Below, piece after piece: positions 4,023 to 48,928 of a DNA stretch of 49,780 nt. The DNA is from Defluviitaleaceae bacterium (GTDB taxonomy: Bacteria; Bacillota; Clostridia; Lachnospirales; WQUN01). Made by a program: the position numbers and the translations under genes. The notes beneath the pieces are model-generated. The model was not told the origin of the DNA. It searched no databases and saw only the letters and a list, made by a program, of their open reading frames with translations. Numbering within the stretch: the stretch's first letter is position 1; each line of letters opens with the position of its first letter. Where the stretch lies: the NCBI GenBank assembly GCA_009781725.1, contig WQVF01000020.1:1-49780 (forward strand), given 5' to 3'.

Positions 4023-4037
4023 AAACTAACCTCCTAG

Positions 4038-4111
4038 CTAGTAGATTTTCTTCTGCGAACGTCTCTGCGTATAAAAAATTTGCGATTTTTGCCGTAGGCA
4101 AAAAAGCTTCA
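4038..4111 (-). repeat. 74-nt double-hairpin intergenic element, copy upstream of tldD
   Basis: Read on the minus strand it starts TGAAGCTTTTTTGCC-TAC-GGCAAAAA and ends AAAATCTACTAG, and is followed at once by the tldD ribosome binding site. The first hairpin (TTTTTGCC/GGCAAAAA) is intact. The second stem is degenerate in its left arm. It has the same layout and sense orientation as the copies before rpsJ, rpsN, rpsE, rpmJ and rpsK. Confidence 0.85.
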
Positions 4112-4115
4112 TTGT

Positions 4116-18351: not shown

Positions 18352-18430
18352 CTCGCCTGTTCCGAAAAAATACTGGAAACAGCATCTTTGTGTCACCAAT
18401 CATGACACGCCCGGCTGCGTATAAGCTGTA

Positions 18431-18504
18431 TGAAACTTTTTTGCCTTCGGCAAAAACCGTAAATTTTTTCTGGATAGAAGCGTTTCCAGAAGAAAATTTA
18501 CTAG
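18431..18504 (+). repeat. 74-nt double-hairpin element, copy upstream of rpsJ
   Basis: First hairpin TTTTTGCC-TTC-GGCAAAAA; second stem AAATTTTTTCTGG paired with CCAGAAGAAAATTT around about 12 nt. It ends ACTAG, directly followed by TATTGGAGG, the rpsJ ribosome binding site. Confidence 0.88.
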
Positions 18505-18519
18505 TATTGGAGGTTCCTT

Positions 18520-18831
18520 ATGCAAAACCAAATCATTAGAATCAATCTAAAAGGCTATGATCACAAGCTGGTTGACCAATCCGTAGCCCAAATCATCGAA
18601 ACCGCAAAGCGTACAGGTGCCAGAGTCTCCGGCCCTATCCCCTTGCCCACCAAAAAGGAAGTTGTCACAATCCTTCGTGCGGTACACAAGTATAAGGACT
18701 CCCGTGAGCAGTTCGAGATGAGAACGCATAAGCGGTTGATTGATATCCACGCCTCTACTCCCAAGACAGCAGACGCATTAGGTCGTCTTGACCTTCCCGA
18801 GGGCGTAGATATCAAAGTAGAAGTAAAATAA
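18520..18831 (+). CDS. rpsJ: Ribosomal protein S10
   Basis: 103 residues, full length for S10, a 30S head protein that also serves NusB in antitermination. The N-terminus '[15 protein letters not shown]' and '[16 protein letters not shown]' are typical, although the usual 'RRIRIRLKAYDH' opening is shortened. It is the first gene of the S10 cluster, with its own promoter 160 nt upstream and the double-hairpin element in its leader. SD TTGGAGG. Confidence 0.97.
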
Positions 18832-18836
18832 CTTAC

Positions 18837-18892
18837 ACCGCAATTTTTTTCTGTATTAAAGCCTACAGAAAAAAATTACTTGATAAGGAAGT
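18837..18892 (+). repeat. Half copy of the double-hairpin element upstream of rplC
   Basis: Only the second hairpin remains: AATTTTTTTCTGTA (18842-18855) pairs perfectly with TACAGAAAAAAATT (18864-18877). The tip differs from other copies (CTGTA/TACAG) but stays complementary. ACTTG and the rplC SD follow. Confidence 0.7.
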
Positions 18893-18899
18893 GACATAA

Positions 18900-19535
18900 A
18901 TGAAGAAAGCAATTTTAGCGAAAAAATTGGGTATGACCCAAGTCTTCGCTCCAGACGGAACAGTAACTCCTGTAACCGTACTGGAAGCCGGCCCCTGTCT
19001 CGTTGTTCAAAAGAAAACAATGGAAAACGACGGTTATGCCGCATTGCAGGTAGGCTTTGATACCATTAAGCCCAAGCATGTAAACGAGCCCAAAAAAGGC
19101 CACTACGAAGCCAATGTAAAAGGCCAAGCCCCTCGCCGCTATCTCCGCGAGTTCAGGCTGGAAGACTGCGACCAGTTTGAAGTCGGCGCCGAAATCAAGG
19201 CCGACGTATTTGTCCCTGGTGACCTTGTGGATGTGTCCGCAATTTCCAAAGGTAAAGGGTTCCAGGGCGCAATCAAGCGCCATGGGCAACATCGCGGCCC
19301 CCTTACTCACGGTTCTAAGTATCACCGTGGACTAGGCTCCATGGGCCCTGGTACAACTCCTGGCCGTGTCCGCAAAGGCAAGAAAATGCCAGGACACATG
19401 GGTGCCAAAAGAATCACCATTCAAAACCTAGAAATAGTAAAAGCAGACCCGGAGAAGAATCTTCTTCTAATAAAAGGTGCAATCCCCGGAGTTAAGGGTG
19501 CACTTGTAACTATCAAGGATACCGTCAAGCAATAA
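18900..19535 (+). CDS. rplC: Ribosomal protein L3
   Basis: 211 residues. It opens '[20 protein letters not shown]' and holds the central '[20 protein letters not shown]' loop that reaches the peptidyl-transferase centre of the 50S subunit. '[18 protein letters not shown]' is the conserved basic stretch. Second gene of the S10 operon; SD AAGGAAGTG. The 68-nt spacer before it carries the half element. Confidence 0.98.
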
Positions 19536-19598
19536 ACACTGTCGCGGTGGCACGCGGCCCCAAAGAGGAGCAATGACGGACTTTAGGAGTGATTGAAT

Positions 19599-20219
19599 AT
19601 GCCATCAGTTCCCATTAAAAACATCAAAGGCGAAACCGTTGGGGAAATGGAGCTTGCCGAAGCCCTATTTGGTGTAGACGTAAACCAACACGCCCTTCAC
19701 ATGGCAGTTGTGCAGTATCTTGCCAACCAACGCCAAGGCACCAAGTCAACCAAGACCCGCTCAGAGGTAAGAGGCGGTGGCCGTAAACCTTGGAGGCAAA
19801 AAGGCACAGGCCGTGCCCGTCAAGGGACAATCCGTGCCCCGCACTTCGTAGGCGGCGGCGTGGTGTTTGCACCAAAGCCCAGGGATTTCTCCATCAGGCT
19901 TAACAAGAAACAAAAAAGGCTGGCCCTCAAATCAGCTCTTTCCGATAAAGTCAACCAAGGTAAGCTGGTCGTACTGGAAAGCCTTGACCTTCCGGAAATC
20001 AAAACCAAAGCCATGGTGGAGGTATGTGAGAAGCTGGAGCTTGGCAAAAGCTTATTCGTGATGACTGGCAGTAATAAAAACGTAATCCTCTCCGCTCGTA
20101 ATATTCCTAACGTCAAAACAGCAGCGGTTAACACAATAAATGTTTATGATATTCTCAAATACGATAACTTTGTAGTAACCAAGGAAGCAGTAGAAGAAAT
20201 GCAGGAGGTGTATGCATAA
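19599..20219 (+). CDS. rplD: Ribosomal protein L4
   Basis: 206 residues. The long extended loop 'KTRSEVRGGGRKPWRQKGTG' lines the 50S exit tunnel. ATG at 19599 behind GGAGTGA. L4 is the known autoregulator of the S10 operon in some bacteria, but whether this holds here is unknown. The last base of its TAA is the first base of the rplW ATG. Confidence 0.98.
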   Translation: MPSVPIKNIKGETVGEMELAEALFGVDVNQHALHMAVVQYLANQRQGTKSTKTRSEVRGGGRKPWRQKGTGRARQGTIRAPHFVGGGVVFAPKPRDFSIRLNKKQKRLALKSALSDKVNQGKLVVLESLDLPEIKTKAMVEVCEKLELGKSLFVMTGSNKNVILSARNIPNVKTAAVNTINVYDILKYDNFVVTKEAVEEMQEVYA

Positions 20220-20527
20220 TGGCCGACCTCAAATACTATGACGTAATCCTTAAACCACTGATGACAGAAAAAAGCATGACCTTGCTGGAAGACCAATGCT
20301 ATGCATTCTATGTACACCCCGACGCAACCAAGGTTCAAATCAAAGAAGCAGTGGAAAAACTCTTCACCGGCACCAAAGTGGCAAAAGTCAATACCCAAAC
20401 CACACATCCAAAGAAACGCCACCGCCGCACCAACGAAGGGGGCTTCCGCCCAGGCCGTACAGTAAAGCGTAAAAAGGCTTTGGTAACCCTGTCAGCTGGT
20501 AGCATTGAGTTATTCGAAGGAATCTAA
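20219..20527 (+). CDS. rplW: Ribosomal protein L23
   Basis: 102 residues with the typical 'DVILKPLMTEKSMTLLED' start and 'YAFYVHPDATKVQIKEAVE' core. L23 sits at the tunnel exit and docks trigger factor and SRP. Start overlaps the rplD stop by one base; its SD AGGAGGTG lies inside rplD. Confidence 0.98.
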   Translation: MADLKYYDVILKPLMTEKSMTLLEDQCYAFYVHPDATKVQIKEAVEKLFTGTKVAKVNTQTTHPKKRHRRTNEGGFRPGRTVKRKKALVTLSAGSIELFEGI

Positions 20528-20552
20528 TCTCTAACCCGAAGGAGTAAACATT

Positions 20553-21386
20553 ATGGGAGTAAAACGCTATAGACCCATAACCCCCTCTCAACGACAGATG
20601 ACCGTTAGCGACTTTGCTGAAATCACAAAGTCAACGCCGGAAAAAAGTCTCACCGTTCACCTAAAGAAGCACTCGGGACGTAACGGCCAAGGCAAAATCA
20701 CTGTTCGCCATAGAGGCGGCGGGGCGAAAATTAAATATAGAATCATAGATTTTAAGCGCAACAAAGACGGTGTACCCGCAAAGGTTGCCGCAATAGAATA
20801 CGATCCCAACCGTACCGCATATATAGCTCTCCTGTTCTATGCTGACGGGGAAAAGAAATACATCCTTGCCCCTCATGGCCTCAAGGTAGGAGACAAGCTA
20901 ATGAGCGGTACTGATGCGGAAGTAAGGGTAGGCAATTCCCTCCCCATGAAGTCAATCCCAGTTGGCACCGAAATTCACAATATAGAAATGAAACCAGGCG
21001 CAGGTGGGCAGCTCGTCCGCTCCGCTGGTAACGTAGCCCAGCTGATGGCAAAAGACGAAAAATATGCCACAGTCCGCCTTCCAAGCAGCGAAATGAGAAT
21101 GGTTCCTGTAAACTGCCGTGCAACAATCGGCCAAATCGGCAACCTGGACAACGAGCTGATTAATATCGGTAAGGCAGGGAAAAAGCGTCATATGGGCATC
21201 AGGCCAACGGTCAGAGGTTCTGTCATGAACCCCAACGACCACCCTCACGGTGGTGGCGAAGGCCGCTCGCCAATAGGCCGCCCCGCACCTTCAACACCTT
21301 GGGGTAAGCCCGCGCTAGGCTACAAAACCCGTAAGAAGAACAAGCAAAGCAATAAGTATATAGTCCGTAAGCGCGGCAGTAAGTAG
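20553..21386 (+). CDS. rplB: Ribosomal protein L2
   Basis: 277 residues, full length. Conserved near the C-terminus is '[19 protein letters not shown]', with the His important for peptidyl-transferase assembly. The N-terminal '[20 protein letters not shown]' is normal. SD AAGGAG in a 25-nt spacer after rplW. Confidence 0.98.
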
Positions 21387-21459
21387 GAGTGGTATAAACA
21401 TCCGCAAAGCGGATTTTGCACATCCTAATTACCCGCCGACGAAGGAGGCACAAATACAC

Positions 21460-21744
21460 ATGGGCAGATCGCTTAAAAAAGGTCCCTTTGCAGACGACCA
21501 TTTGCTAAAAAAAGTCGACGCAATGAACCAAACTACCAATAAACAAGTTATCAAGACCTGGTCACGCCGGTCTACAATATTCCCCGAAATGATTGGCCAT
21601 ACAATCGCAGTACATGATGGCCGTAAACATGTCCCTGTCTATATCACCGAAGATATGGTTGGGCATAAGCTAGGCGAGTTTGCCGCCACCCGCACATACC
21701 GCGGTCATGGCAAAGACGCCGAAAAACGCAGTCGCGTAAAGTAG
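21460..21744 (+). CDS. rpsS: Ribosomal protein S19
   Basis: 94 residues; '[17 protein letters not shown]' opening and '[19 protein letters not shown]' core are diagnostic. Binds the 30S head near S13. SD GAAGGAGG. The 73-nt spacer behind rplB holds a small ATCCGC-AAA-GCGGAT hairpin but no copy of the 74-nt element. Confidence 0.98.
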
Positions 21745-21757
21745 GAGGTCTCAAGCT

Positions 21758-22147
21758 ATGCCAAAAGGATCAAGAAGCCAATATAAACAAACACGTAACG
21801 CGGAAAATAGAGAAACACGCCCTCATGCTCACCATATGTTTGCCCGTATTTCTGATACAAAGGCCCGCATTGTACTTGAGCAAATCAAAGGCAAAGGTGT
21901 GGAGGAAGCCGCAGCCATCTTAGACTACTCGCCAAGATACGGCGCGTACCTGATTGGTAAAGTGCTAAAATCCGCCGCCGCCAACGCAGAAGAAAACCAT
22001 GGCCTAGACAGGTCTGAACTATTTGTAGAAGAAGTAATCGCTAACCAAGGGCCCACCTTAAAGCGTATCCAGCCCAGAGCAAAGGGCCGTGCATACCGCA
22101 TTAACAAGAAGATGAGCCATATCACGATTATTTTAAACGAGAGGTGA
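21758..22147 (+). CDS. rplV: Ribosomal protein L22
   Basis: 129 residues with '[20 protein letters not shown]' and the C-terminal tunnel loop '[20 protein letters not shown]'. The N-terminus is about 15 residues longer than in B. subtilis. SD TAGGAGG, 13 nt after rpsS. Confidence 0.97.
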
Positions 22148-22151
22148 ATTC

Positions 22152-22916
22152 ATGGGCCAAAAAGTAAATCCCCACGGTCTGCGTCTGGGCATTAACAAAG
22201 AATGGGACTCCGTATGGTATGCAGAACGGGACTATGCCAAACTGCTGCTAGAGGACTACAAACTCCGCACTCATCTTAAGACTAAGCTCTACAAAGCCCA
22301 GGTCTCCAAGATAAGAATCCAGCGCACAACCGATAGGGTAAAAATAACAATCCACACCGCAAGCCCTGGTATTATCATTGGCCGTAGCGGTCAAGCAATC
22401 CTTGATTTGACCAATGAGCTTCAAAAGCTTATCGGTGTAGGTGCAGATGAGCGCAAAGTTGATGTCAACATTGTAGAAATCAAGCGTAAAGAACTTGACG
22501 CTCAGCTCGTAGCCGAAGATATAGCCCTTCAATTAGAAAATCGCGTTACCTTCCGCAGGGCTATGAAGCAGGCAATGGGGCGCACGATGAAAATGGGCGC
22601 ACGTGGCATCAAGACCGCTGTGTCAGGCCGCTTAGGCGGAGCCGACATTGCAAGAACCGAAAGCTATCACGAAGGTACAATCCCACTGCAAACTTTGCGT
22701 GCAGATATAGATTATGGCTTTGCCGAAGCCAAGACTACCTATGGTAAGCTTGGTGTCAAGGTATGGCTGTACAAAGGCGAGGTAATCCCAGGAGCACCAC
22801 AGCGGGAAGACAGACCCAGAAGAGATAGACGAGACAACAGGGAAGGAGGACGTAATCATGCTAATGCCCAAAAGGGTAAAACGTCGCAAGCAGTTCCGCG
22901 GCAGAATGACAGGTAA
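22152..22916 (+). CDS. rpsC: Ribosomal protein S3, with charged C-terminal tail
   Basis: 254 residues. KH domain with '[20 protein letters not shown]' and the conserved '[20 protein letters not shown]'. The C-terminal 40 residues are a low-complexity Arg/Asp/Asn/Gln tail, longer than usual, and their coding sequence overlaps the start of rplP by 59 nt. The S3 core ends before the overlap, so the tail may be tolerated rather than needed. SD GAGGTGAATTC. Confidence 0.96.
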
Positions 22917-23310
22917 AGCACTCAGAGGTAATTCTATTACCTATGGGGATTATGGCCTCGTGGCAATGGAACCAACATGGATTACCGCCAACCAAATCGA
23001 GTCCGCCCGTATCGTGCTCAATCGTACAATGCGCCGCGGTGGTAAAGTTTGGATAAAAATTTTCCCAGATAAACCCGTGACTCAAAAACCAGCTGAAACC
23101 CGTATGGGTAGCGGTAAAGGTTCACCAGAATACTGGGTGGCTGTAGTAAAACCGGGAAGAGTAATGTTCGAAATCTCAGGTGCCGATGAAGAACTTTCTC
23201 GCAAGGCACTTAAGCTGGCTTCCTACAAGCTTCCGATAAAATGCAAAATCGTAACCAAGGCGGAGCAGATTGCAGAAGCAGAAGCCCAAGCAGCAGCTGA
23301 AGCGCAATAA
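22858..23310 (+). CDS. rplP: Ribosomal protein L16
   Basis: 150 residues; the start '[19 protein letters not shown]' and the '[18 protein letters not shown]' motif near the tRNA-binding face are classic. SD AAGGAGGACG lies within rpsC, and the two genes overlap in different frames by 59 nt. The C-terminus has an Ala/Glu-rich tail of about 15 residues beyond the usual end. Confidence 0.98.
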
Positions 23311-23328
23311 TAAAAGGAGGCTGAGGTC

Positions 23329-23586
23329 ATGAAATCAAAGAAATACCTGGCATCCCTTAACGATAAATCCGTTGATGAATTAAACCTAGAGCTGGTCAAC
23401 ACAAAGAAGGAACTCTTCAACCTACGTTTCCAAAACGCAACCAACCAGTTAGACAACACAGCAAGAATCAACGAGGTCCGGAAAAATATCGCACGGATAC
23501 AGACCGTAATTACCCAGCGTGTAAAAGGAGAAGGCAAAAAGCCTCTATCCAGAGCATCTAGGAAAAAAGCGGTAGCCACAAGCTAA
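23329..23586 (+). CDS. rpmC: Ribosomal protein L29
   Basis: 85 residues: two helices with '[19 protein letters not shown]' and '[17 protein letters not shown]', the normal L29 fold near the tunnel exit. About 15 basic residues are added at the C-terminus. SD AAAGGAGG. Confidence 0.96.
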
Positions 23587-23607
23587 TAGAGTAAGGGAGG
23601 CAAGACG

Positions 23608-23880
23608 GTGCAACCAGAAAAGCAAACAGAGCGGAACCTACGCAAAACAAGAATCGGCAGGGTAGTCAGCGACAAGATGGACAAAACCATCGTAGTGGCC
23701 GTAGAAAACCGCATCAAGCACCCCGTAATAGGCAAAATCGTAAAGCGCACCTATAAACTAAAGGCCCATGACGAGCTCAACGATTGTAATATCGGCGACA
23801 GAGTAAGGGTTATGGAAACACGCCCATTATCCAAGGATAAGCGTTGGCGTTTGGTTTCCATCATTGAGAAGGCGAAGTAG
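23608..23880 (+). CDS. rpsQ: Ribosomal protein S17
   Basis: 90 residues from a GTG start behind GGGAGG. OB-fold with '[19 protein letters not shown]' and '[19 protein letters not shown]'. Primary 16S-binding protein of the 30S body. Confidence 0.97.
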
Positions 23881-23906
23881 AGTCCTTTCATTAGGAGGAA
23901 ACATCT

Positions 23907-24275
23907 ATGATTCAACAAGAAAGTAGGCTCCGCTCCGCTGACAATTCCGGCGCGAAAGAGCTCCTATGTATCCGCGTATTAGGCGGAAGTAAGCGCAGAT
24001 ACGGCAATGTCGGTGACATCATTGTATGTGCCGTTAAAGACGCAACTCCCGGCGGCGTCGTCAAAAAAGGTGAAGTCGTGCGCGCAGTTATCGTGCGCAC
24101 TGTCAAGGGCCTTAGCCGCCCAGACGGCTCCTCCATCCGCTTTGACGAAAACGCAGCTGTTATAATCAAGGAAGACTTGACCCCAAGGGGCACACGTATC
24201 TTTGGCCCGGTGGCAAGAGAACTTAGGGAAAAGCAATTTTCCCGCATAATTTCATTGGCACCGGAAGTGCTGTAA
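23907..24275 (+). CDS. rplN: Ribosomal protein L14
   Basis: 122 residues, exact family length. '[20 protein letters not shown]' and the C-terminal '[15 protein letters not shown]' are diagnostic. First gene of the spc section; contacts L19 and the 30S subunit. SD TTAGGAGG. Confidence 0.98.
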
Positions 24276-24288
24276 AGTGAGGTAACCC

Positions 24289-24654
24289 ATGAAATCGAGT
24301 CCACAGAAAATAAAAACAAAAATCCGTCGCGATGATACGGTTCAGGTTGTAGCTGGCAAGGAAGTCGGCCGTACCGGTAAGGTCCTGATGATTGACCGTG
24401 AGAAAAACCGCGTAATCGTGGAAGGCCTGAATATGCAAACAAAGCATCAAAAGCCTAACCGCGCCAACCAAACCGGCGGTATCACTCGCACCGAGGCACC
24501 ACTTAACCTTTCCAATGTGATGTATCTCCACAAAGGGAAGCCTACCCGCCTTGGATTCAAGGTAAACGTAGAGATAACAGAGGTAGATGGTAAGCAAAAG
24601 CGTACAGTAACAAAGCAACGCTACGCCAAGTCCACCGGAGAAATTATAGAATAA
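24289..24654 (+). CDS. rplX: Ribosomal protein L24
   Basis: 121 residues with the KOW motif 'DDTVQVVAGKEVGRTGKVL' and 'MYLHKGKPTRLGFKV'. Early assembly protein of the 50S subunit. About 15 residues longer than the B. subtilis protein, mostly at the N- and C-termini. SD GTGAGGTAA. Confidence 0.97.
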   Translation: MKSSPQKIKTKIRRDDTVQVVAGKEVGRTGKVLMIDREKNRVIVEGLNMQTKHQKPNRANQTGGITRTEAPLNLSNVMYLHKGKPTRLGFKVNVEITEVDGKQKRTVTKQRYAKSTGEIIE

Positions 24655-24705
24655 AGCAAGCTATTGTGCGGATGGAATCGCGCATGAATTAGCTAGGAGG
24701 AACTT

Positions 24706-25257
24706 ATGAGTCGGTTAAGAGGCATGTACGATACCGAAATCATCGATGCAATGATGAAGAAGTTCGGATATAAGAACAAGCTGGCTGTACCCAAAATCGA
24801 AAAAGTAGTAGTTAACATCGGCTTAGGCGAAGCAAAGGAAAACGCTAAGGTCATAGAACATGCTACTAATGATATCACTGTAATCACCGGCCAAAAGCCT
24901 GTGGTAACAAAGGCAAAGAAATCTATCTCAGCCTTTAAGCTAAGAGCCGGAATGCCAGTAGGCACAAAGGTAACTCTTAGAGGTGCTAAGATGTATAGCT
25001 TTGTTGACAGGCTGATAAATGTAGCCATCCCTCGTGTAAGAGACTTCCGAGGTGTCAGCCCGGATGCTTTTGACGGCAGAGGCAACTATACTCTGGGAAT
25101 CAAGGAGCAACTTATTTTCCCAGAGATTTCATATGACCAGATTGACAAGCTTAGAGGCATGGAAGTGGTTTTCGTAACCACCGCAAACACTGACGAGGAA
25201 GCAAGAGAGCTACTTTCCCTGTTTGGAATGCCATTTGTAAGACCAGGGCAGCAATAA
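24706..25257 (+). CDS. rplE: Ribosomal protein L5
   Basis: 183 residues; '[19 protein letters not shown]', '[19 protein letters not shown]' and '[20 protein letters not shown]' are conserved. Binds 5S rRNA and contacts P-site tRNA. SD CTAGGAGG. The 51-nt spacer before it ends TTAGCTAGGAGG, like the tail of the 74-nt element, but no hairpins remain. Confidence 0.98.
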
Positions 25258-25258
25258 A

Positions 25259-25331
25259 TGAAACTTTTTTGCCTACGGCAAAAACCGTAAATTTTTTTTG
25301 AGTGGAAACATCCCAGAAGAAAATTTACTAG
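25259..25331 (+). repeat. Double-hairpin element, copy upstream of rpsN
   Basis: 73 nt. First hairpin TTTTTGCC-TAC-GGCAAAAA perfect. The second stem is weakened in this copy (left arm AAATTTTTTTTGAGTGG against CATCCCAGAAGAAAATTT). Ends ACTAG and is followed by TCAGGAGG, the rpsN SD. Confidence 0.85.
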
Positions 25332-25344
25332 TCAGGAGGTTACT

Positions 25345-25530
25345 ATGGCAAAAAAAGCATTAATATTAAAATCACAAAAACCGCCAAAATTCTCAACTAG
25401 GGCATACAGACGCTGTAATATCTGTGGTCGCCCTCACGCCAATTTGCGCAAGTATGGCATCTGCCGTATATGTTTTAGAGAATTAGCGTACAAGGGTCAA
25501 ATCCCTGGTGTACGTAAGGCTAGCTGGTAA
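25345..25530 (+). CDS. rpsN: Ribosomal protein S14, zinc-binding type
   Basis: 61 residues, the short zinc form with Cys24, Cys27, Cys40 and Cys43 in '[20 protein letters not shown]'. Assembles late into the 30S head. The N-terminus '[20 protein letters not shown]' fits the type. The element copy fills the whole gap to rplE. Confidence 0.97.
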
Positions 25531-25559
25531 TAAAGTTGTAAACAGAAGGAGGAGCGCTA

Positions 25560-25958
25560 ATGTTGTCCGACCCTATAGCGGATATGCTCACCAGGATTCG
25601 TAATGCTAACATGGCCAGACATACGACTGTGGACATTCCATCGTCTCAAATGAAAGTTGCCATTGCACAGATTTTGCAAAAAGAAGGCTATGTCAAAGGT
25701 TATGAGATAATTAAAGACGGCGTAAAGCAAACCATGCGTATAACCCTAAAGTATGGCCGCAACAAAAATGATAAGGTCATCGCAGGCCTAAAGCGCATCT
25801 CTAAGCCAGGCCTCAGGGTCTATGCCAACTGTGAAGATTTGCCCAAGGTTCTCAATGGGCTTGGCCTTGCCATTGTTTCCACTAACAAAGGTGTAGTCAC
25901 AGACAGAGAAGCCCGTAAGCTGGGCGTAGGTGGCGAAGTACTTGCATTTGTATGGTAA
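25560..25958 (+). CDS. rpsH: Ribosomal protein S8
   Basis: 132 residues: '[20 protein letters not shown]' start and '[21 protein letters not shown]' end (the last stretch is the 16S-binding domain). In E. coli S8 represses the spc operon; no matching site was identified here. SD AGGAGGAGCG. Confidence 0.98.
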
Positions 25959-26016
25959 AAGCCTTTGTCTAAAGTGACAAAACCAGAAAAGTAACATAAC
26001 GAAGGAGGTGCAGAAC

Positions 26017-26559
26017 ATGTCAAGGATTGGTAAACTTCCCATAGTGATTCCCTCAGGCTTGAAAGTCGACCTAAAAGAAGGCAATCTTCTCACAGTCGAA
26101 GGCCCAAAGGGAAAACTTACACGCAAACTTTCTCCCGACATGAACATCGCACAGGAAGACGGGCAGTTAAAAATAACCCGCCCCAATGATTTAAAACGCT
26201 TTAAGGCACTTCACGGTCTCACTCGCACACTGATTAATAACATGGTGGTGGGTGTGACCCAGGGCTATGAAAAGAAACTGGAGATTAACGGTACCGGTTA
26301 TCGTGCTGCCAAAGCTGGCAACAAGCTGACCCTTACACTGGGTTATTCCCACCCCATAGAAATGGAAGATCCCGAGGGCGTAACTACAACAGTTGATGGT
26401 AATACCAAAATAACTGTCTCCGGTATAGATAAGGAAAAAGTCGGCCAGCATGCCGCCAATATACGTTCCAAGCGTGAACCTGAACCTTACAAAGGCAAGG
26501 GTATCAAGTACGAGACCGAAAGAATCAGACGCAAAGCCGGTAAGGCCGGTAAGAAATAA
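26017..26559 (+). CDS. rplF: Ribosomal protein L6
   Basis: 180 residues from the ATG 8 nt after AAGGAGG (an ATG 9 nt upstream overlaps the SD and is not favoured). Two similar domains; the C-terminal '[20 protein letters not shown]' is diagnostic. Near the GTPase centre of the 50S subunit. Confidence 0.98.
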
Positions 26560-26578
26560 AAACGGTAGGTGAGAGGCA

Positions 26579-26950
26579 ATGATAAAAAAACCATCCCGCG
26601 CTGTGGCGCGTCAGAAACGCCATTATAAGTTAAGGCGTTATCTAGTGGGTACGGCCCAGCGTCCTCGCCTGTCCGTATTCAGATCTAATAAGCATATCTA
26701 TGCACAAATTATCGACGATGATATCGGGCATACTTTGGTAAGCGCATCTACAATGACCATGGCGTTCAAGGATTCGGATTTGGAGTCTTCCTCCAACGTA
26801 GAAGCTGCCAAAGCCGTTGGTACAGAAATCGCAAATAAGGCCAAGGAAAAAGGCATCGAGACAATCGTATTTGACCGTGGCGGCTATCTTTATCACGGAA
26901 AAGTCAAAGCTCTGGCGGATGCCGCTAGGGAAGCCGGACTTAAGTTCTAG
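26579..26950 (+). CDS. rplR: Ribosomal protein L18
   Basis: 123 residues; '[20 protein letters not shown]' and '[20 protein letters not shown]' are typical. Binds 5S rRNA with L5. SD GTGAGAGGC, 19 nt after rplF. Confidence 0.98.
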
Positions 26951-26957
26951 CTTATTG

Positions 26958-27031
26958 TGAAACTTTTTTGCCTTTGGCAAAAACCGCAAATTGATTTCTG
27001 CGCTGAAGCATCGCAGAAATAAATTTACTAG
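26958..27031 (+). repeat. Double-hairpin element, copy upstream of rpsE
   Basis: 74 nt. First hairpin TTTTTGCC-TTT-GGCAAAAA. Second stem AAATTGATTTCTGCG against CGCAGAAATAAATTT, with one mismatch. Compared with the rpsJ copy both arms have changed together. Ends ACTAG then TTAGGAG, the rpsE SD. Confidence 0.88.
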
Positions 27032-27044
27032 TTAGGAGATTCCT

Positions 27045-27551
27045 ATGAATAAAGTAGACCCAAACGCCTTAGAGCTCCAGGATCGAGTAGTTGATATTAA
27101 CCGTGTAACAAAAGTTGTAAAGGGAGGACGTACCTTCCGCTTTGCTGCACTGGTAATAGTCGGAGACGGTAATGGTAGCGTAGGTGCTGGCCTGGGTAAG
27201 GCAAACGAAATCCCAGAGGCAATCCGTAAAGGCAAGGAAGATGCCAAGAAGAACATGATTCTGCTAGAGCGCAACGAGAACGACAGCCTCTATCACGAAA
27301 TCATAGGCAACTTCGGTGCTGCCAAAGTGTTAATGCGCCCAGCCCCCGAAGGTACCGGCGTAATAGCAGGCGGTGCAATGCGCGCGGTGCTTGAGCTTGC
27401 AGGTGTGCGCAACATCGTAACTAAGTCAATCGGTTCAAATAATAAACACAATGTGGTCAAGGCTACTCTGCAAGGGTTAAAATCAGTTAAAACCCCTTCA
27501 GAAGTTGCAAGGCTCCGTGGTAAGACAGTTCAAGAAATATTAGAAGCATAA
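27045..27551 (+). CDS. rpsE: Ribosomal protein S5
   Basis: 168 residues with '[20 protein letters not shown]' and '[15 protein letters not shown]'. Acts in decoding fidelity with S4. The 94-nt gap from rplR is mostly the element copy. Confidence 0.98.
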
Positions 27552-27591
27552 ATAAATCCGCCGCCGATGGCGGGATAGGATAGGGATAATT

Positions 27592-27777
27592 ATGGCTCAA
27601 TTGCAGATAACCTTAGTACGCTCGACTATCGGCGTAAAACCTAAGCATAAGCTTACGGTGGAGGCCCTAGGGCTTAGAAAATTAAACTCCACTGTTATAC
27701 AAAAAGACAACCCGGCAATTCGCGGCATGGTTCATCAAGTGCGGCACTTGCTCAAAGTTGAAGAAGTAAATCAATAA
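27592..27777 (+). CDS. rpmD: Ribosomal protein L30
   Basis: 61 residues; '[20 protein letters not shown]' and '[20 protein letters not shown]' are diagnostic. A short CCGCC-GAT-GGCGG hairpin and a weak SD (GATAGGGATA) precede it. Confidence 0.97.
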
Positions 27778-27787
27778 GGAGGCCGCT

Positions 27788-28228
27788 ATGAAACTAGGTG
27801 AACTAAAGCCCGCCGAGGGTGCAACAACTAAAGGCTGGCGGCGCGGCAGAGGCCATGGTTCCGGCAACGGAAAGACCGCAGGACGAGGCCATAAAGGCCA
27901 AAAATCCAGGTCAGGCAGTGGCGGCAAGGTCGGGTTCGAGGGTGGACAAATGCCCCTTTACAGACGTCTGCCAAAAAGAGGTTTCAAATGTCGCAACACA
28001 AAGGAAATCGTTGCAATCAATGTAACACTGCTTAACGTATTCGAAGATGGTACCGTTGTGGATATAGCCGCCCTCAAACAAAAGGGCCTGGTATCTAACC
28101 CAAGAGACGGTGTGAAAATCCTCGGAAACGGCGAACTAAAGAAAAAGCTTACCGTACAAGTCAACCAGTACAGCAACACCGCCGCTGAGAAAATTGAGGC
28201 GATGGGCGGTAAAGCAGAGGTGGTATAG
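27788..28228 (+). CDS. rplO: Ribosomal protein L15
   Basis: 146 residues. The Gly/Arg-rich N-terminus ('GRGHGSGNGKTAGRGHKGQK') threads into 23S rRNA, followed by 'GGQMPLYRRLPKRGFK'. Its stop is immediately followed by the TTG start of secY, which implies coupling. Confidence 0.98.
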   Translation: MKLGELKPAEGATTKGWRRGRGHGSGNGKTAGRGHKGQKSRSGSGGKVGFEGGQMPLYRRLPKRGFKCRNTKEIVAINVTLLNVFEDGTVVDIAALKQKGLVSNPRDGVKILGNGELKKKLTVQVNQYSNTAAEKIEAMGGKAEVV

Positions 28229-29569
28229 TTGTTTAAAATATTTGCAAATGCCTGGCGAGTACAAGATATCCGTAAGAAATTGCTGTTCATTTTCCTATTG
28301 CTTCTTATATATAGGTTTGGGACGGCTATTCCTTTGCCTGGCATAGATTTACAGACACTCAGTGACTTCCGGTATGGAGGAGCCATGCCATGGGACACTG
28401 CCGCGACCCTTTTCCAAATGATTATGGGTGGCGGCATTGGTTCTATTTTCGCAATGGGTATCGCACCATACATTACAGCGTCCATTATCATGCAGCTTCT
28501 GACCTACGCTATTCCTGCGCTCGCTCAGATGCAAAAAGAAGGTGAGGATGGCCGTAAGAAAATCGGTCAGATTACTCGCTATATGGCAGTTGGTCTTGCC
28601 GCAGTGCAAGCCGCAGCAACAGTGTTTTCATACACCAACTTCCATGGGACAGGTGCAAACCTCTTTAGATATGGAAATATGATGGTTTATGTCGTTGCCA
28701 CATTGGCAATGGTTACCGGTACTATTTTCATCATGTGGTTGGCAGAATTATTGACAGAGAAAGGTATTGGTAATGGTGCATCCTTCCTGATTTTTGCCAA
28801 TATTTTATCCCAGTTACCCCAAGGCATCATGATGATGTGGCACTTTATGACTGACGGAGAGACTAATCGATTTGTTGCAGTTGTCATTGTCATTGTAGTG
28901 CTGGCGGTCTTTGCTCTGATAATTGCTTTCGTCGTAATGGTTCATGAGGGTGAAAGGCGTATTCCGGTGCAGTACTCAAAATCTGCTGCTGGTGGTCGTT
29001 CTATGTTTGGGAATCAGAGCTCATATATACCATTGAAGGTTAATATCGCAGGCGTACTTTCAATCATATTTGCGGTAACCTTGCTGCAATTCCCCACGAT
29101 GATTATGGGTTTCATCCCACCGTCTGAGGATCCAGGATGGTTTGTGCGTAGATTTGGACCTGGCCCTGATGGAGTACTAAACATTGGTGGCCCCCATGGT
29201 TTCCATTGGATTGGCCTACTAGTTTATGTAGTTTTGATATTTGCATTCACACATTTCTATACATCTTTTGCTGTAAATCCGGTGGAAATGGCCGAGAACA
29301 TGAAAAAGAACGGTGGATTTATACCAGGTATACGTCCTGGCAAGCCCACCAGTGAGTTTATCCAGACAACGGTTAACCGTCTAAGCTGGATTGGTGCTGT
29401 GTTCTATTCATTGATTGCTCTTTCCCCGATTATCCTTGACCAGCTTACTGGCATACCTGTCGGTTTCGGCGGCACCACCTTGCTGATTGTTATCGGTGTA
29501 GCCCTTGAGTTTATCAAGCAGCTTGAGTCACAGCTACTCATGCGACATTACAAAGGCTTCTTAAGTTAA
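28229..29569 (+). CDS. secY: Preprotein translocase subunit SecY
   Basis: 446 residues with ten membrane helices, the SecYEG channel pore. 'WRVQDIRKKLLFIFLLLLIY' start, 'GIGSIFAMGIAPYITASIIM' in the plug/helix 2 region, and a cytosolic loop with 'VQYSKSAAGGRSMFGNQSSY'. The TTG start directly abuts the rplO stop. About 40 residues between helices 7 and 8 are Gly/Pro-rich ('GFIPPSEDPGWFVRRFGPGP') and look longer than usual. Confidence 0.97.
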   Translation: MFKIFANAWRVQDIRKKLLFIFLLLLIYRFGTAIPLPGIDLQTLSDFRYGGAMPWDTAATLFQMIMGGGIGSIFAMGIAPYITASIIMQLLTYAIPALAQMQKEGEDGRKKIGQITRYMAVGLAAVQAAATVFSYTNFHGTGANLFRYGNMMVYVVATLAMVTGTIFIMWLAELLTEKGIGNGASFLIFANILSQLPQGIMMMWHFMTDGETNRFVAVVIVIVVLAVFALIIAFVVMVHEGERRIPVQYSKSAAGGRSMFGNQSSYIPLKVNIAGVLSIIFAVTLLQFPTMIMGFIPPSEDPGWFVRRFGPGPDGVLNIGGPHGFHWIGLLVYVVLIFAFTHFYTSFAVNPVEMAENMKKNGGFIPGIRPGKPTSEFIQTTVNRLSWIGAVFYSLIALSPIILDQLTGIPVGFGGTTLLIVIGVALEFIKQLESQLLMRHYKGFLS

Positions 29570-29572
29570 TGC

Positions 29573-30319
29573 ATGGGGATTTTTATCAAAAATGATTCGC
29601 AGATTGCGCTTATGCGCACTGCTTGTCATATATGCGCACGCACCCACGAACTCCTTGAAAAATACATTAAACCGGGGATAACAACAGAAGAGTTATGTAA
29701 AATCGCAGAGGAATATATCCGAGGACAGGGTGCAAAGCCAAGTTTCCTAGGATACCGCGGCTTCCCAAAAGCGATTTGCACTTCTGTAAACGAGCATGTG
29801 ATTCATGGTGTGCCCGGTTTAAGGCGTCTTAAAAGCGGCGATATTATTAGTATTGATATCGGCGTGTGCTATAAACGGTTTCACGGAGATGCAGCACGTA
29901 CCCATCCTGTTGGGAAGATTACCCCAGAGCATCAGCGACTAATCGACGTAGCTCGGGATAGCTTTTTCGAAAGCATAATTTATGCTCGTCAGGGCTTTCA
30001 TCTTCATGAAATGTCTGCTGCAATCGAGGATTATGTAAAAGGACATGGGTTTAGTGTTGTGCAGGAGTGGTGTGGCCACGGGATAGGACGGCAACTGCAT
30101 GAGGATCCATCAATTCCTCACTATAGGCAGGAAAAGCGCGGGCCGCGGTTGGTAAAGGGTATGACCCTAGCGGTGGAACCTATGATTAACGCCGGAGGCC
30201 ACGAACTTAACATGCTGGATGATACTTGGACAGTGGTGACTCATGATGGGAAATTCTCAGCTCACTACGAAAACACTTTTCTTGTGACTACAGGTGAGCC
30301 GGATATTATGACTTTATGA
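29573..30319 (+). CDS. map: Methionine aminopeptidase
   Basis: 248 residues, type I. Metal ligands lie in the conserved segments 'SIDIGVCYKRFHGDAART', 'GHGIGRQLHEDPSIPHY', 'LAVEPMIN' and 'YENTFLVT'. Removes the initiator Met co-translationally. It begins 3 nt after secY; adk, normally between them, is absent. Its stop overlaps the next gene (ATGA). Confidence 0.97.
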   Translation: MGIFIKNDSQIALMRTACHICARTHELLEKYIKPGITTEELCKIAEEYIRGQGAKPSFLGYRGFPKAICTSVNEHVIHGVPGLRRLKSGDIISIDIGVCYKRFHGDAARTHPVGKITPEHQRLIDVARDSFFESIIYARQGFHLHEMSAAIEDYVKGHGFSVVQEWCGHGIGRQLHEDPSIPHYRQEKRGPRLVKGMTLAVEPMINAGGHELNMLDDTWTVVTHDGKFSAHYENTFLVTTGEPDIMTL

Positions 30320-30591
30320 AACCAGGGCAGATAGTATTTTCGAAGCAAGGGCGAGACAAGAGTATGGCCATGATTGTGATTGCCGTGGAAGGTGAGTACG
30401 CATGGCTGGTCGATGGCCGACTACGGCCCCTTGCTAAGCCAAAGAAAAAAAAGGCTAAGCATGTACAAATCACAAAAAATATTGTTGATTTACAGCTCTC
30501 ATGTGGGCGAGCATTACAAGACGCGGATATTCGAAAATATTTAGTTGGATATCAAAAAAGGGAGGTTGCCGAATGTCAAAGGACGACGTAA
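30316..30591 (+). CDS. KOW-domain RNA-binding protein (L14e/YlxR-neighbour type)
   Basis: 91 residues. The N-terminal KOW/SH3-like fold ('[20 protein letters not shown]', '[20 protein letters not shown]') suggests an RNA- or ribosome-binding protein. Clostridia often carry such a gene between map and infA. It overlaps map by 4 nt and infA by 19 nt, so it is expressed with them. The exact function is not established. Confidence 0.8.
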
Positions 30592-30791
30592 TCGAAGTCG
30601 AAGGTAGGGTTATAGAGAAATTACCCAATGCTACGTTTCAAGTACAATTAGAAAACGGACATACCATACTTGCGCACATATCTGGCAAACTACGGATGAA
30701 TTTTATCCGTATAATCCCGGGGGACAAGGTTCTCATAGAAATGTCGCCTTATGATTTGACCAAGGGCCGGATAGTCTGGCGTGACAAATAA
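30573..30791 (+). CDS. infA: Translation initiation factor IF-1
   Basis: 72 residues, the family's normal length: '[20 protein letters not shown]' and '[20 protein letters not shown]' mark the OB fold that covers the 30S A site. SD GGGAGGTTG lies inside the overlapping KOW gene. The start was chosen at the MSKDD Met; codons before it belong to the KOW gene overlap. Confidence 0.98.
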
Positions 30792-30809
30792 ATAGAGTTC
30801 AGAACTGGA

Positions 30810-30883
30810 TGAATTTTTTTTGCCTTCGGCAAAAACCGCAAATTTATTTCTGCTTAAAATCATCACAGAAATAAATTTACTAG
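30810..30883 (+). repeat. Double-hairpin element, copy upstream of rpmJ
   Basis: 74 nt. First hairpin TTTTTGCC-TTC-GGCAAAAA. The second stem, AAATTTATTTCTG with CAGAAATAAATTT, is a perfect 13-bp match. Ends ACTAG and is followed by ATGAGGTG, the rpmJ SD. Confidence 0.88.
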
Positions 30884-30899
30884 ATGAGGTGTATTTATC

Positions 30900-31013
30900 A
30901 TGAAAGTTAGACCATCAGTTAAGCCCATTTGCGAAAAATGCAAAATAATCCGCCGCAAGGGCGCAATCAGAGTTATTTGTGAAAATCCCCGGCATAAGCA
31001 GCGGCAGGGTTAA
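30900..31013 (+). CDS. rpmJ: Ribosomal protein L36
   Basis: 37 residues, '[20 protein letters not shown]' and onward, with zinc ligands Cys11, Cys14, Cys27 and His32. Exact family length. It stabilises 23S rRNA near the L11/GTPase region. The leader is the element copy, with GAGGTG as SD. Confidence 0.97.
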
Positions 31014-31025
31014 GGAGGACTATTT

Positions 31026-31394
31026 ATGGCACGTATTGCAGGTGTAGACTTGCCAAGAGAAAAGCGCGTTGAAATTGGCCTGACCTATATATTCGGGATT
31101 GGTCGTTCCAGCTCTAATCGCATTTTGAAAGAAGCTGGGATTAACCCAGACACCCGTGTACGGGATCTTACTGATGACGAGGTCGTCAGAATTCGAAGCA
31201 CAATCGAAACTACCCAAATGGTGGAGGGTGACCTGCGCCGTGAGGTAGCACTTAATATAAAACGACTGGTAGAGATAGGGTGCTATCGTGGTATACGCCA
31301 TCGCAGGAGTCTTCCGGTGCGTGGCCAACGTACCCGTACCAATGCTCGAACCCGTAAGGGTAAAGCCAGAACCGTTGCCAACAAGAAAAAATAA
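31026..31394 (+). CDS. rpsM: Ribosomal protein S13
   Basis: 122 residues; '[20 protein letters not shown]' and '[19 protein letters not shown]' are diagnostic. Forms the subunit bridge with L5. SD AAGGAGG, 12 nt after rpmJ. Confidence 0.98.
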
Positions 31395-31397
31395 TTA

Positions 31398-31470
31398 TGA
31401 AGCTTTTTTGCCTATGGCAAAAACCGTAAATTTTTTCTGCGTAAAAGCATCGCAGAAGAAAATTTACCAG
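31398..31470 (+). repeat. Double-hairpin element, copy upstream of rpsK
   Basis: 73 nt. First hairpin TTTTTGCC-TAT-GGCAAAAA. Second stem AAATTTTTTCTGCG against CGCAGAAGAAAATTT with one bulge. Ends ACCAG, then CTAGGAGG, the rpsK SD. Confidence 0.88.
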
Positions 31471-31488
31471 CTAGGAGGATAGCATAAT

Positions 31489-32612: not shown

Positions 32613-32719
32613 GACATGACCCCCTTTGCATGTCGCGCAAAACGCGACCCCGTAGCGACGCAAGGAGCGAGGAAGCAAGTGGGGCTTTGCCCCGCGCAGC
32701 GGCTGGGGTTCAGAGCCCC
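32613..32719 (+). other. Hairpin-rich rpsD-rpoA spacer
   Basis: Three simple hairpins: GACAT...ATGTC (32613-32634), GGGGC-TTT-GCCCC (32681-32693) and GGGG...CCCC (32705-32719). The GC-rich, repeat-like sequence differs from its neighbours and contains 'GCGACGCAAGGAGCGAGGAA', which recalls the widespread GCGAAGCGA-type repeat. It ends just before the AAAGGAGG SD of rpoA. No T-run, so not a terminator. Confidence 0.5.
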
Positions 32720-32742
32720 GATTTAAAAGGAGGATTGCAAGC

Positions 32743-36078: not shown

Positions 36079-36163
36079 TATGCTAGGAAATTGCTTCGTA
36101 ATTTCTGCTGGCACGGCCAGAAACAAAAGCGCGCTTTGCGCGTTTTGTTCTATGCTAGGAAAC
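36079..36163. repeat. Cluster of small palindromes flanked by a 12-bp direct repeat
   Basis: Three hairpins in a row: GAAATT...AATTTC, CTGGC-ACG-GCCAG, and AACAAAAGCGCGC-TTT-GCGCGTTTTGTT. The direct repeat TATGCTAGGAAA occurs at both ends. It abuts the 104-bp element. No coding. Confidence 0.55.
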
Positions 36164-36267
36164 TATAGCGAATTAAATGAGAAACAGTCCAGACCGAGCC
36201 GAAAATCGTGAACGATTCTACACGTTTTCGGCGACAGGCTGGACTGATTTCGAATTAATTCGCTATA
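36164..36267. repeat. 104-bp MITE-like palindrome, copy 1
   Basis: Perfect 13-bp terminal inverted repeats TATAGCGAATTAA / TTAATTCGCTATA and a palindromic body. The same 104-bp element is at 48825-48928. TA at both ends suits a TA-targeting mobiliser of the IS630/mariner kind (inference). Confidence 0.85.
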
Positions 36268-48746: not shown

Positions 48747-48824
48747 AGAATTGCCATACATAGAAACGCCAGCAGTTTTGTCTTTGAGTACTTACAGTTG
48801 CGCATTGTGTAAGGAAATGACGAC

Positions 48825-48928
48825 TATAGCGAATTAAATGAGAAACAGTCCAGGCCGAGCCGAAAATCGCGAACGCTTCTACGCGTTTTCGGCGACAGAC
48901 TGGACTGATTTCGAATTAATTCGCTATA
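48825..48928. repeat. 104-bp MITE-like palindrome, copy 2
   Basis: Same length and ends as the copy at 36164-36267 (TATAGCGAATTAA / TTAATTCGCTATA), with about six differences in 104 positions. The inner stem CGTG/CACG of copy 1 is CGCG/CGCG here, a compensatory change. Confidence 0.85.

What the first reader, a model, noticed from the sequence alone, without database searches (positions are those of the whole stretch)
18431..31470. A 73-74 nt double-hairpin element sits directly 5' of the SD of many genes, always in sense
Six near-complete copies (4038-4111 minus, 18431-18504, 25259-25331, 26958-27031, 30810-30883, 31398-31470) and one half copy (18837-18892) share a layout: TGAARCTTTTTTGCC-NNN-GGCAAAAACCG, then a long A/T stem with a CTG/CAG tip, then ACTAG and the ribosome binding site. 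The genes are tldD, rpsJ, rpsN, rpsE, rpmJ, rpsK and rplC. All seven have the same orientation to the gene and end within about 5-10 nt of its SD. The second stem covaries: CTGG/CCAG, CTGCG/CGCAG and CTGTA/TACAG tips, and TTTTCTG/CAGAAGAAAA versus TTATTTCTG/CAGAAATAA bodies. This points to selection on an RNA fold, or to an element that spreads while carrying its own SD. It could be a translation switch, RNase site or protein-binding site linking ribosomal protein genes. I know of no described family with this form, but cannot search.
Basis: partly seen in the sequence, partly recalled or inferred. Interest (0 to 1): 0.82.

Follow-up and report, generated by a model that had tools for sequence, protein, structure and literature searches.

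The report
Mobile three-armed repeat before ribosome-binding sites
A DNA repeat of about 75-80 letters, predicted to fold into a three-armed shape, occurs at 33 places in this bacterium's genome, mostly directly before the ribosome-binding signal of a gene, and it likely spreads as a small mobile element that would use such signals as landing sites.

Summary
The own genome holds 46 copies at 33 sites (E<=2e-5), nine of them tandem arrays. P1 ends 0-2 nt before the SD at 51 of 54 script-classed SD sites (42 of 54 under a stricter SD definition). Sense dominates (28 sense, 4 antisense, 1 undetermined) but is not absolute. Congeners have empty sites (rpsN, rpsE, rnpB). One copy lies antisense in the P12 loop of RNase P RNA; one is a 26-aa in-frame antisense insert in a membrane protein; others precede tRNA-His or tRNA-Leu or lie in the 5' part of rnpB. 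Nine genomes of one order carry it at E<=1e-5. I read it as a non-autonomous structured mobile repeat that most likely inserts 5' of AGGAGG-like motifs, usually SDs, rather than as a dedicated translation switch. Targeting is the best account but not proved: 13 of 22 non-SD sites lack such a motif. The mobilising enzyme is unknown. No Rfam family fits. A regulatory role at some ribosomal genes is not excluded.

The parts
4036..4112 (-). Full unit (P1-P2-P3) 5' of the SD of the PmbA/TldD-family gene (2640-4022, minus)
   Evidence: 92.2 bits; P1 AGCT/AGCT
18430..18506 (+). Full unit 5' of the rpsJ SD
   Evidence: 99.2 bits; no recognisable copy in the rpsJ leader stretches printed for G001, G002, G003, G020
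18838..18885 (+). Partial unit (P3 part only) 5' of the rplC SD
   Evidence: 49.3 bits
25258..25333 (+). Full unit 5' of the rpsN SD
   Evidence: 103.2 bits; site empty in G001 and G002, a related unit in G020, other sequence in G003
26957..27033 (+). Full unit 5' of the rpsE SD
   Evidence: 98 bits; site empty in G001 and G002
30809..30885 (+). Full unit 5' of the rpmJ SD
   Evidence: 89.3 bits; site also occupied in G001 and G002
31397..31472 (+). Full unit 5' of the rpsK SD
   Evidence: 106.4 bits; MFE is the three-way junction; site also occupied in G001, G002 (3 tandem copies) and G053
31401..31404 (+). P1, 5' strand (rpsK copy, AGCT), pairs with 31469-31472
   Evidence: fold; covariation
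31405..31423 (+). P2 hairpin (TTTTTGCC / GGCAAAAA) of the rpsK copy
31426..31467 (+). P3 hairpin of the rpsK copy, loop around GAAGC/AAAGC
31469..31472 (+). P1, 3' strand (rpsK copy), followed at once by the SD AGGAGG at 31473-31478

Best explanation
It is a dispersed repeat of about 75-80 nt, predicted to fold into a three-way junction, that occurs at 33 places in this genome and most likely spreads as a non-autonomous mobile element whose insertion is likely aimed at AGGAGG-like G-rich motifs, so that it lands directly 5' of SDs and in their sense. Shown by the calls: copies, tandem arrays, position, empty sites in congeners, an insertion in RNase P RNA and one in a reading frame, a covarying outer helix P1. 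Inferred: the target motif is read on one strand, which would set both orientation and spacing; the host gene keeps its own SD, so most insertions are tolerated. Inferred: the fold is kept because the element moves or is copied as a folded single strand, P1 bringing its two ends together. Inferred: highly transcribed translation genes are hit more often because their non-template strand or transcript is more accessible. Unknown: the enzyme. Effects on the host gene (loss of translational coupling, a 5' processing site) would be by-products, perhaps adopted at old sites such as rpmJ and rpsK.
For: 46 copies at 33 sites, nine head-to-tail arrays with period 73-80 nt. Empty orthologous sites with the SD present (rpsN, rpsE; rnpB). 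Insertion in rnpB P12 on the antisense strand, with the RNase P match running across it. A 26-aa in-frame antisense insert absent from 10 of 10 chosen homologs. Copies next to tRNA-His in four genomes and tRNA-Leu in one, and in the 5' part of rnpB in G047 and G069. P1 ends 0-2 nt before the SD at 51 of 54 (lenient) or 42 of 54 (strict) SD sites; 15 of 54 SD-adjacent sites have at least 100 nt of upstream spacer by a crude ORF caller, three of the 15 without any upstream ORF found. Same spacer hit in opposite orientation: antisense array at G000 C38, sense copy in G002 C2, same flanking proteins. Four of six orthologous pairs rank in mid-field among cross-genome pairs. RGNGG within 8 nt at 7 of 22 non-SD sites, background 2.6-3.1% of stretches.
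Against: 13 of 22 non-SD sites have no G-rich motif beside them; collapsing tRNA-His and rplK orthologs leaves only 3 of 18 (4 of 18 within 10 nt), and the motif and window were chosen after seeing the sites. Of six orthologous pairs, rpsK (26 of 182) and rplK (30 of 182) rank in the top sixth, so some sites may be inherited. No target-site duplication and no mobilising enzyme found: Y1_Tnp in 2 of 9 and RVT_1 in 1 of 9 carriers tested, neither in G000. No strain-level presence/absence polymorphism was available. The C38 antisense array has no G-rich motif at its right end; the SD there abuts its left end.
Confidence: 0.6

Rival explanations
1. A cis-acting regulatory RNA family: the three-way junction beside the SD binds a protein, ligand or nuclease and co-regulates translation genes; dispersal is how the regulon grew.
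For: Sense bias 28 to 4; fixed spacing to the SD; covariation; translation genes recur across genomes: rplJ, rplK, fusA, rpsL, efp, rpsD, rpsH, rplE and others; rpmJ, rpsK, rplK and tRNA-His sites occupied in more than one genome.
Against: Antisense copies in rnpB, in an ORF and in an operon spacer; tRNA and rnpB copies have no SD; rpsN and rpsE sites empty in congeners; sense-strand A.C exceeds G.U 41 to 13, or 26 to 13 without one column pair; P1 base identity differs freely between copies; many downstream genes are not translation genes.
Confidence: 0.22
2. A passive hairpin repeat: insertion is random and only copies between a stop codon and an SD survive; pairing is kept by templated correction between palindromic arms, not by selection.
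For: Most sites lie in short operon spacers; P2 and P3 are hairpins, whose arms can be corrected on each other (general knowledge, not tested here).
Against: 15 of 54 SD-adjacent sites have at least 100 nt of spacer upstream yet lie beside the SD; tolerance alone does not explain the strand bias; P1 arms are about 65 nt apart with two hairpins between them and still covary.
Confidence: 0.1
3. A REP or IS200/IS605-type element moved by a Y1 (HUH) transposase, now lost from these genomes.
For: Hairpins near both ends and strand-specific insertion without target duplication fit single-strand transposition (family knowledge, recalled). Y1_Tnp is present in G050 and G069.
Against: No Y1_Tnp in G000 nor in G001, G002, G020, G047, G053, G044, which include the two genomes with most copies.
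Confidence: 0.08

Closest known systems
Rickettsia palindromic elements (RPE)
   Same: Short palindromic repeats dispersed in a genome and able to sit in frame inside genes (review PMC10969869, passages seen).
   Different: RPEs are about 150 bp and encode a conserved peptide; this unit adds 78 nt in its one in-frame case, mostly sits 5' of SDs, and has a three-way junction with a covarying outer helix.
MITEs such as Correia and small intergenic repeats (ERIC, BOX, RUP)
   Same: Non-autonomous, short, intergenic, able to form hairpins in transcripts.
   Different: No fixed terminal inverted repeats (the P1 strands are 4 nt and change together) and no target duplication seen; position fixed relative to the SD.
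REP / IS200-IS605-type single-strand elements
   Same: Hairpin-bearing ends and strand-specific insertion (recalled).
   Different: No Y1_Tnp in 7 of 9 carriers tested.
Ribosomal-protein leaders (for example L10_leader)
   Same: Structured RNA 5' of ribosomal-protein SDs.
   Different: No Rfam match on the element; at rplJ the copy lies just downstream of an ordinary L10_leader match; copies also precede unrelated genes.

Membership tests
Rickettsia palindromic element | length about 150 bp | tested here: not met
   unit about 75-80 nt; array periods 73-80 nt
Rickettsia palindromic element | in-frame insertion in coding genes with a conserved encoded peptide | tested here: inconclusive
   one in-frame case; a conserved peptide cannot be judged from one case
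Classical MITE | fixed terminal inverted repeats | tested here: not met
   terminal P1 strands are 4 nt and occur in eight fully paired forms
Classical MITE | target-site duplication | tested here: inconclusive
   none seen at rpsN and rpsE by comparison with G001 and G002; these genomes are too diverged (about 75-80% DNA identity) to be sure
REP / IS200-IS605 | Y1 transposase in the carrier | tested here: not met
   0 in G000; 2 of 8 other carriers; draft genomes
Retro-element | reverse transcriptase (RVT_1) in the carrier | tested here: not met
   0 in G000; 1 of 8 other carriers
Known structured RNA family (Rfam 15) | match at gathering score | tested here: not met
   none in the window; none to the element in six loci at E<=5, where RNase P and tRNA matches only border or overlap copies
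Dedicated translation regulator | sense copies before a functional class only | tested here: not met
   4 of 33 antisense, varied downstream genes
Dedicated translation regulator | effect on expression | not testable with these tools
   needs RNA-seq or reporters

The most novel reading that the evidence does not exclude
An SD-homing mobile nucleic acid: a 75-80 nt three-way-junction unit that moves as a folded single strand or as RNA, by a mechanism not yet known, into the transcribed strand directly 5' of ribosome-binding motifs, tRNA 5' ends and sites in RNase P RNA, preferring highly expressed genes, and amplifying in tandem because its own 5' end (AGGAA/ATGAA) mimics the target.
Probability: 0.3. 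Interest if true: 0.85.

Novelty: new variant of a known kind. Interest (0 to 1): 0.66.

Why it matters
This repeat sits at six places in the S10-spc-alpha ribosomal region of the window, in RNase P RNA of three genomes and beside tRNA genes, and the SD stays in place at the SD sites. If insertion is aimed at SD-like motifs, every gene start becomes a potential target with a fixed geometry, and the element would add the same structured 5' RNA to dozens of mRNAs. That would be a concrete route by which a selfish repeat could turn into a shared leader. The covarying P1 gives a direct mutational test of whether the constraint acts on RNA, on single-stranded DNA or on neither.

Tried and rejected
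Rfam at gathering threshold on the window and on 14 further loci, and at E<=5 on six loci: no family for the element. Reading P2 as an intrinsic terminator was rejected from the sequence: A runs, not T runs, follow the GC stem on both strands. Y1 transposase and reverse transcriptase as mobilisers. Low-scoring model hits at C37:6643, C88, C40, C15, C7, C90 and C72 proved to be another family, an 88-nt inverted repeat. A target duplication of AGGA was suspected, but by eye the left AGGA/ATGA does not follow the right flank, so it was dropped. Looking for the membrane protein in G001, G002, G003 and G020 gave nothing. Literature: searches listed no paper that I recognised as describing this element; I saw listings and abstract starts only, and passages of PMC10969869. 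Most subscription papers are not in that library.

Rows dropped. Of 65 model hits at E<=1 in G000, 19 with E>=0.0148 were left out. One search used 41 one-per-site copies of the 83 references prepared; repeat copies within arrays, the G002 subfamily with another P3, and partial or degenerate copies were left out. Searches use 78 one-per-site copies from nine genomes; they omit the C37 half copy, the marginal G006 hit and all G069 copies. One search scored 68 of 78, because the script did not find the 5' arm in 10. One search classed 54 of 78 as SD sites (start codon at most 26 nt after P1, at least 3 nt of AGGAGG before it); its SD-core regex was lenient, and one search gives the stricter count. 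rpmJ in G000 and G001 are SD sites by eye that the script missed. One search uses a slightly different set of 54. One search shows 10 homologs that I chose of the 120 listed (197 found); several others (P0006, P0007, P0010, P0012, P0016, P0018) have unrelated extra residues in the same loop, so that loop is length-variable.
Full report
1. The observation. The genes are a PmbA/TldD-family gene, rpsJ, rplC (partial copy), rpsN, rpsE, rpmJ and rpsK (Pfam). Rfam has no family for it in the window.

2. Genome-wide. A model of the seven copies finds 46 matches at E<=2e-5 in the own 3.35-Mb genome G000, whose contig C20 is the window. I grouped them into 33 sites, nine of them head-to-tail arrays of 2-3 copies with period 73-80 nt. 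A pattern for P2 alone, which says nothing about the SD, gives 24 exact matches and 38 with up to 2 mismatches. Orientation, read: 28 sites in sense with the nearest downstream (or containing) gene, including the half copy at C37 and the partial copy at rplC; 4 antisense (C4 in rnpB, C22 in an ORF, the C38 array, C12:20390); 1 undetermined (C69). A two-sided sign test on 28 against 4 gives about 2e-5 (my arithmetic). A few of the 28 precede weak or distant starts (C3, C6:26145, C11, C28:24808, C35:37714).

3. A third helix. On 41 one-per-site copies from three genomes (A2) the first and last paired segments pair with each other. I named P1 (columns 5-8 with 78-81), P2 and P3 and counted: 93.4% of cells paired (86.1 in shuffles), 15 pairs with changes on both sides (7.3), 79 doubly changed cells (21.0), 0 of 500 shuffles as high; slid registers gave 2-8 such pairs. 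RNAalifold on its own predicted P2 and most of P3 but not P1. The MFE of the rpsK copy shows P1; the other four sequences folded, most of them given with longer flanks, do not. Over 68 of 78 sites scored, P1 is fully Watson-Crick at 39, against 11.4 in shuffles (maximum 20 of 2000), in eight forms: AATC/GATT, AGTC/GACT, AATT/AATT, AACT/AGTT, AGTT/AACT, AGCT/AGCT, ATCT/AGAT and ATTC/GAAT. These controls do not correct for relatedness of copies.

4. Which strand is constrained? Among cells that are not Watson-Crick, sense-strand A.C outnumbers G.U 41 to 13; without column pair 32-75 it is 26 to 13. A.C on the sense strand is G.U on the other strand. This gives no support for selection on the sense RNA and leans to the other strand or to DNA. 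Copies are related, so I treat it as weak.

5. Position. Of 78 one-per-site copies in nine genomes, 54 were classed as SD sites. The SD core begins 0-2 nt after P1 at 51 of 54 with a lenient core and at 42 of 54 with a strict 4-nt core, 46 within 3 nt. The start codon lies 10-22 nt after P1 at these sites (the class itself demanded at most 26). Two more, rpmJ in G000 and G001, are SD sites by eye. By a crude ORF caller 15 of 54 SD-adjacent sites have at least 100 nt of upstream spacer, three of them without any upstream ORF in the stretch held, so lack of space does not explain the spacing at those sites.

6. Empty sites. rplE-rpsN reads CAATAGGAGGTTA in G001 and G002 and carries the unit in G000; rplR-rpsE is likewise empty in G001 and G002; the rpsJ leader stretches of G001, G002, G003 and G020 show no recognisable copy. 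The SD is present in the empty sites, so the unit does not bring it. rpmJ is occupied in G000, G001 and G002; rpsK in G000 (1 copy), G001 (1), G002 (3) and G053. Of six orthologous pairs compared, rpmJ (76 of 208, 79 of 182, 40 of 56) and tRNA-His (32 of 56) rank in mid-field among cross-genome pairs, while rpsK (26 of 182) and rplK (30 of 182) rank in the top sixth. This fits turnover better than slow vertical descent at most of these sites, not at all.

7. Odd sites. In G000 a copy lies antisense in the P12 loop of RNase P RNA (RF00010, 289 bits across it; sequence); G001, G002, G003 and G020 lack it there. The name P12 is from recall of the RNase P map. Read in the unit's sense, the right junction is CTGATTAAGCGG. 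In G047 and in G069 (another family of the order) a copy lies in the 5' part of rnpB, in sense, shortly before GAGGAAAGTCC; its place in or near P3 is by eye and recall. Copies directly precede tRNA-His in G001, G002, G050 and G044 and tRNA-Leu in G069. One G000 copy is a 26-aa in-frame, antisense insert in a membrane protein, absent from 10 of 10 chosen homologs, in a loop that varies in length in others. In G001:C16 the P2 hairpin alone repeats about every 34 nt before a gene that reads as rpmA by eye. At C38 three antisense copies occupy the same spacer in which G002 has a sense copy: both flanking proteins match.

8. Target motif. Of the 22 sites without an SD, seven have RGNGG within 8 nt of P1; such stretches make up 2.6-3.1% of the window's strands. 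Counting tRNA-His and rplK once each leaves 3 of 18, or 4 of 18 within 10 nt. Thirteen of the 22 have no such motif. Motif and stretch were chosen after seeing the sites. So targeting is the best single account of position and strand, but is not proved.

9. Spread. Model R2 matches 10 of 38 genomes of the family at E<=0.001, two of them (G006, G013) only marginally, and 9 of 295 genomes drawn from the order at E<=1e-5, one of them (G069) outside the family (strict filters, at most 15 candidates scored per genome). One contig of genome contigs matches the pattern, WQVY01000030.1, titled Defluviitaleaceae bacterium isolate Emb289P1bin52; it has the length of G001 contig C30, so G001 is likely that organism. 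The family belongs to Lachnospirales, Clostridia.

10. Genes hit. NCBIfam confirms rplJ, rplK, fusA, rpsL, groEL (as the start of the protein), efp, rpsD, rpsH, rplE and atpD downstream of copies in different genomes; I chose these ten because they looked like translation or housekeeping genes. Outside the window, 4 of the 26 own-genome sites (rplJ, rplK, fusA, rnpB) belong to translation or RNA processing. The enrichment fits both easy access at highly transcribed genes and a function.

11. Mobiliser. None found. Y1_Tnp and RVT_1 have no match in G000; among eight other carriers Y1_Tnp is in G050 and G069 and RVT_1 in G050. These are draft genomes (G000 94% complete). Other transposase families were not searched.

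12. Verdict. A real family of structured repeats that I found described nowhere within the searches named; most likely mobile and aimed at SD-like motifs; regulation is a possible secondary role. New variant of small mobile bacterial repeats.

Noticed in passing
window 36162-36267 and 48823-48928: Two 106-nt copies, 95% identical, each a long inverted repeat (47-nt arms): a separate MITE-like family.
   Followed up: no
window 21396-21450 (rplB-rpsS spacer): A stretch that matches about 20 places in G001 and G002. Own AAGTAGGAGTGG...GACGAAGGAGGCACAA against AAGTAGGAGGCACAA in G001 suggests a second repeat family inserted within an SD with a short duplication.
   Followed up: partly
window 32631-32736 (rpsD-rpoA spacer): A stretch that matches several places in G001, G002 and G003: a third repeat family.
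   Followed up: no
L162-L167 and L070 (G000 C88, C40, C15, C7, C90, C72, C37): An inverted-repeat family of about 88 nt beginning TGCGAACTTAAACT, in tandem in some places; its loop GCGTTGAAGC resembles the P3 loop of the element.
   Followed up: partly
L071 (G000 C37:14255-14314): The 5' half of a unit (P2 only) forms the last codons of a gene that reads as pyrK-like by eye.
   Followed up: partly
L004 (after 1579) and L077 (before 1512, minus): The copies at C11 and C3 are both followed by ATACRAAAATAACTCTGTCRGCTTA, probably another short repeat.
   Followed up: no
L134 (G001 C16:16852-16979): The P2 hairpin alone repeats about every 34 nt just upstream of a full unit.
   Followed up: partly
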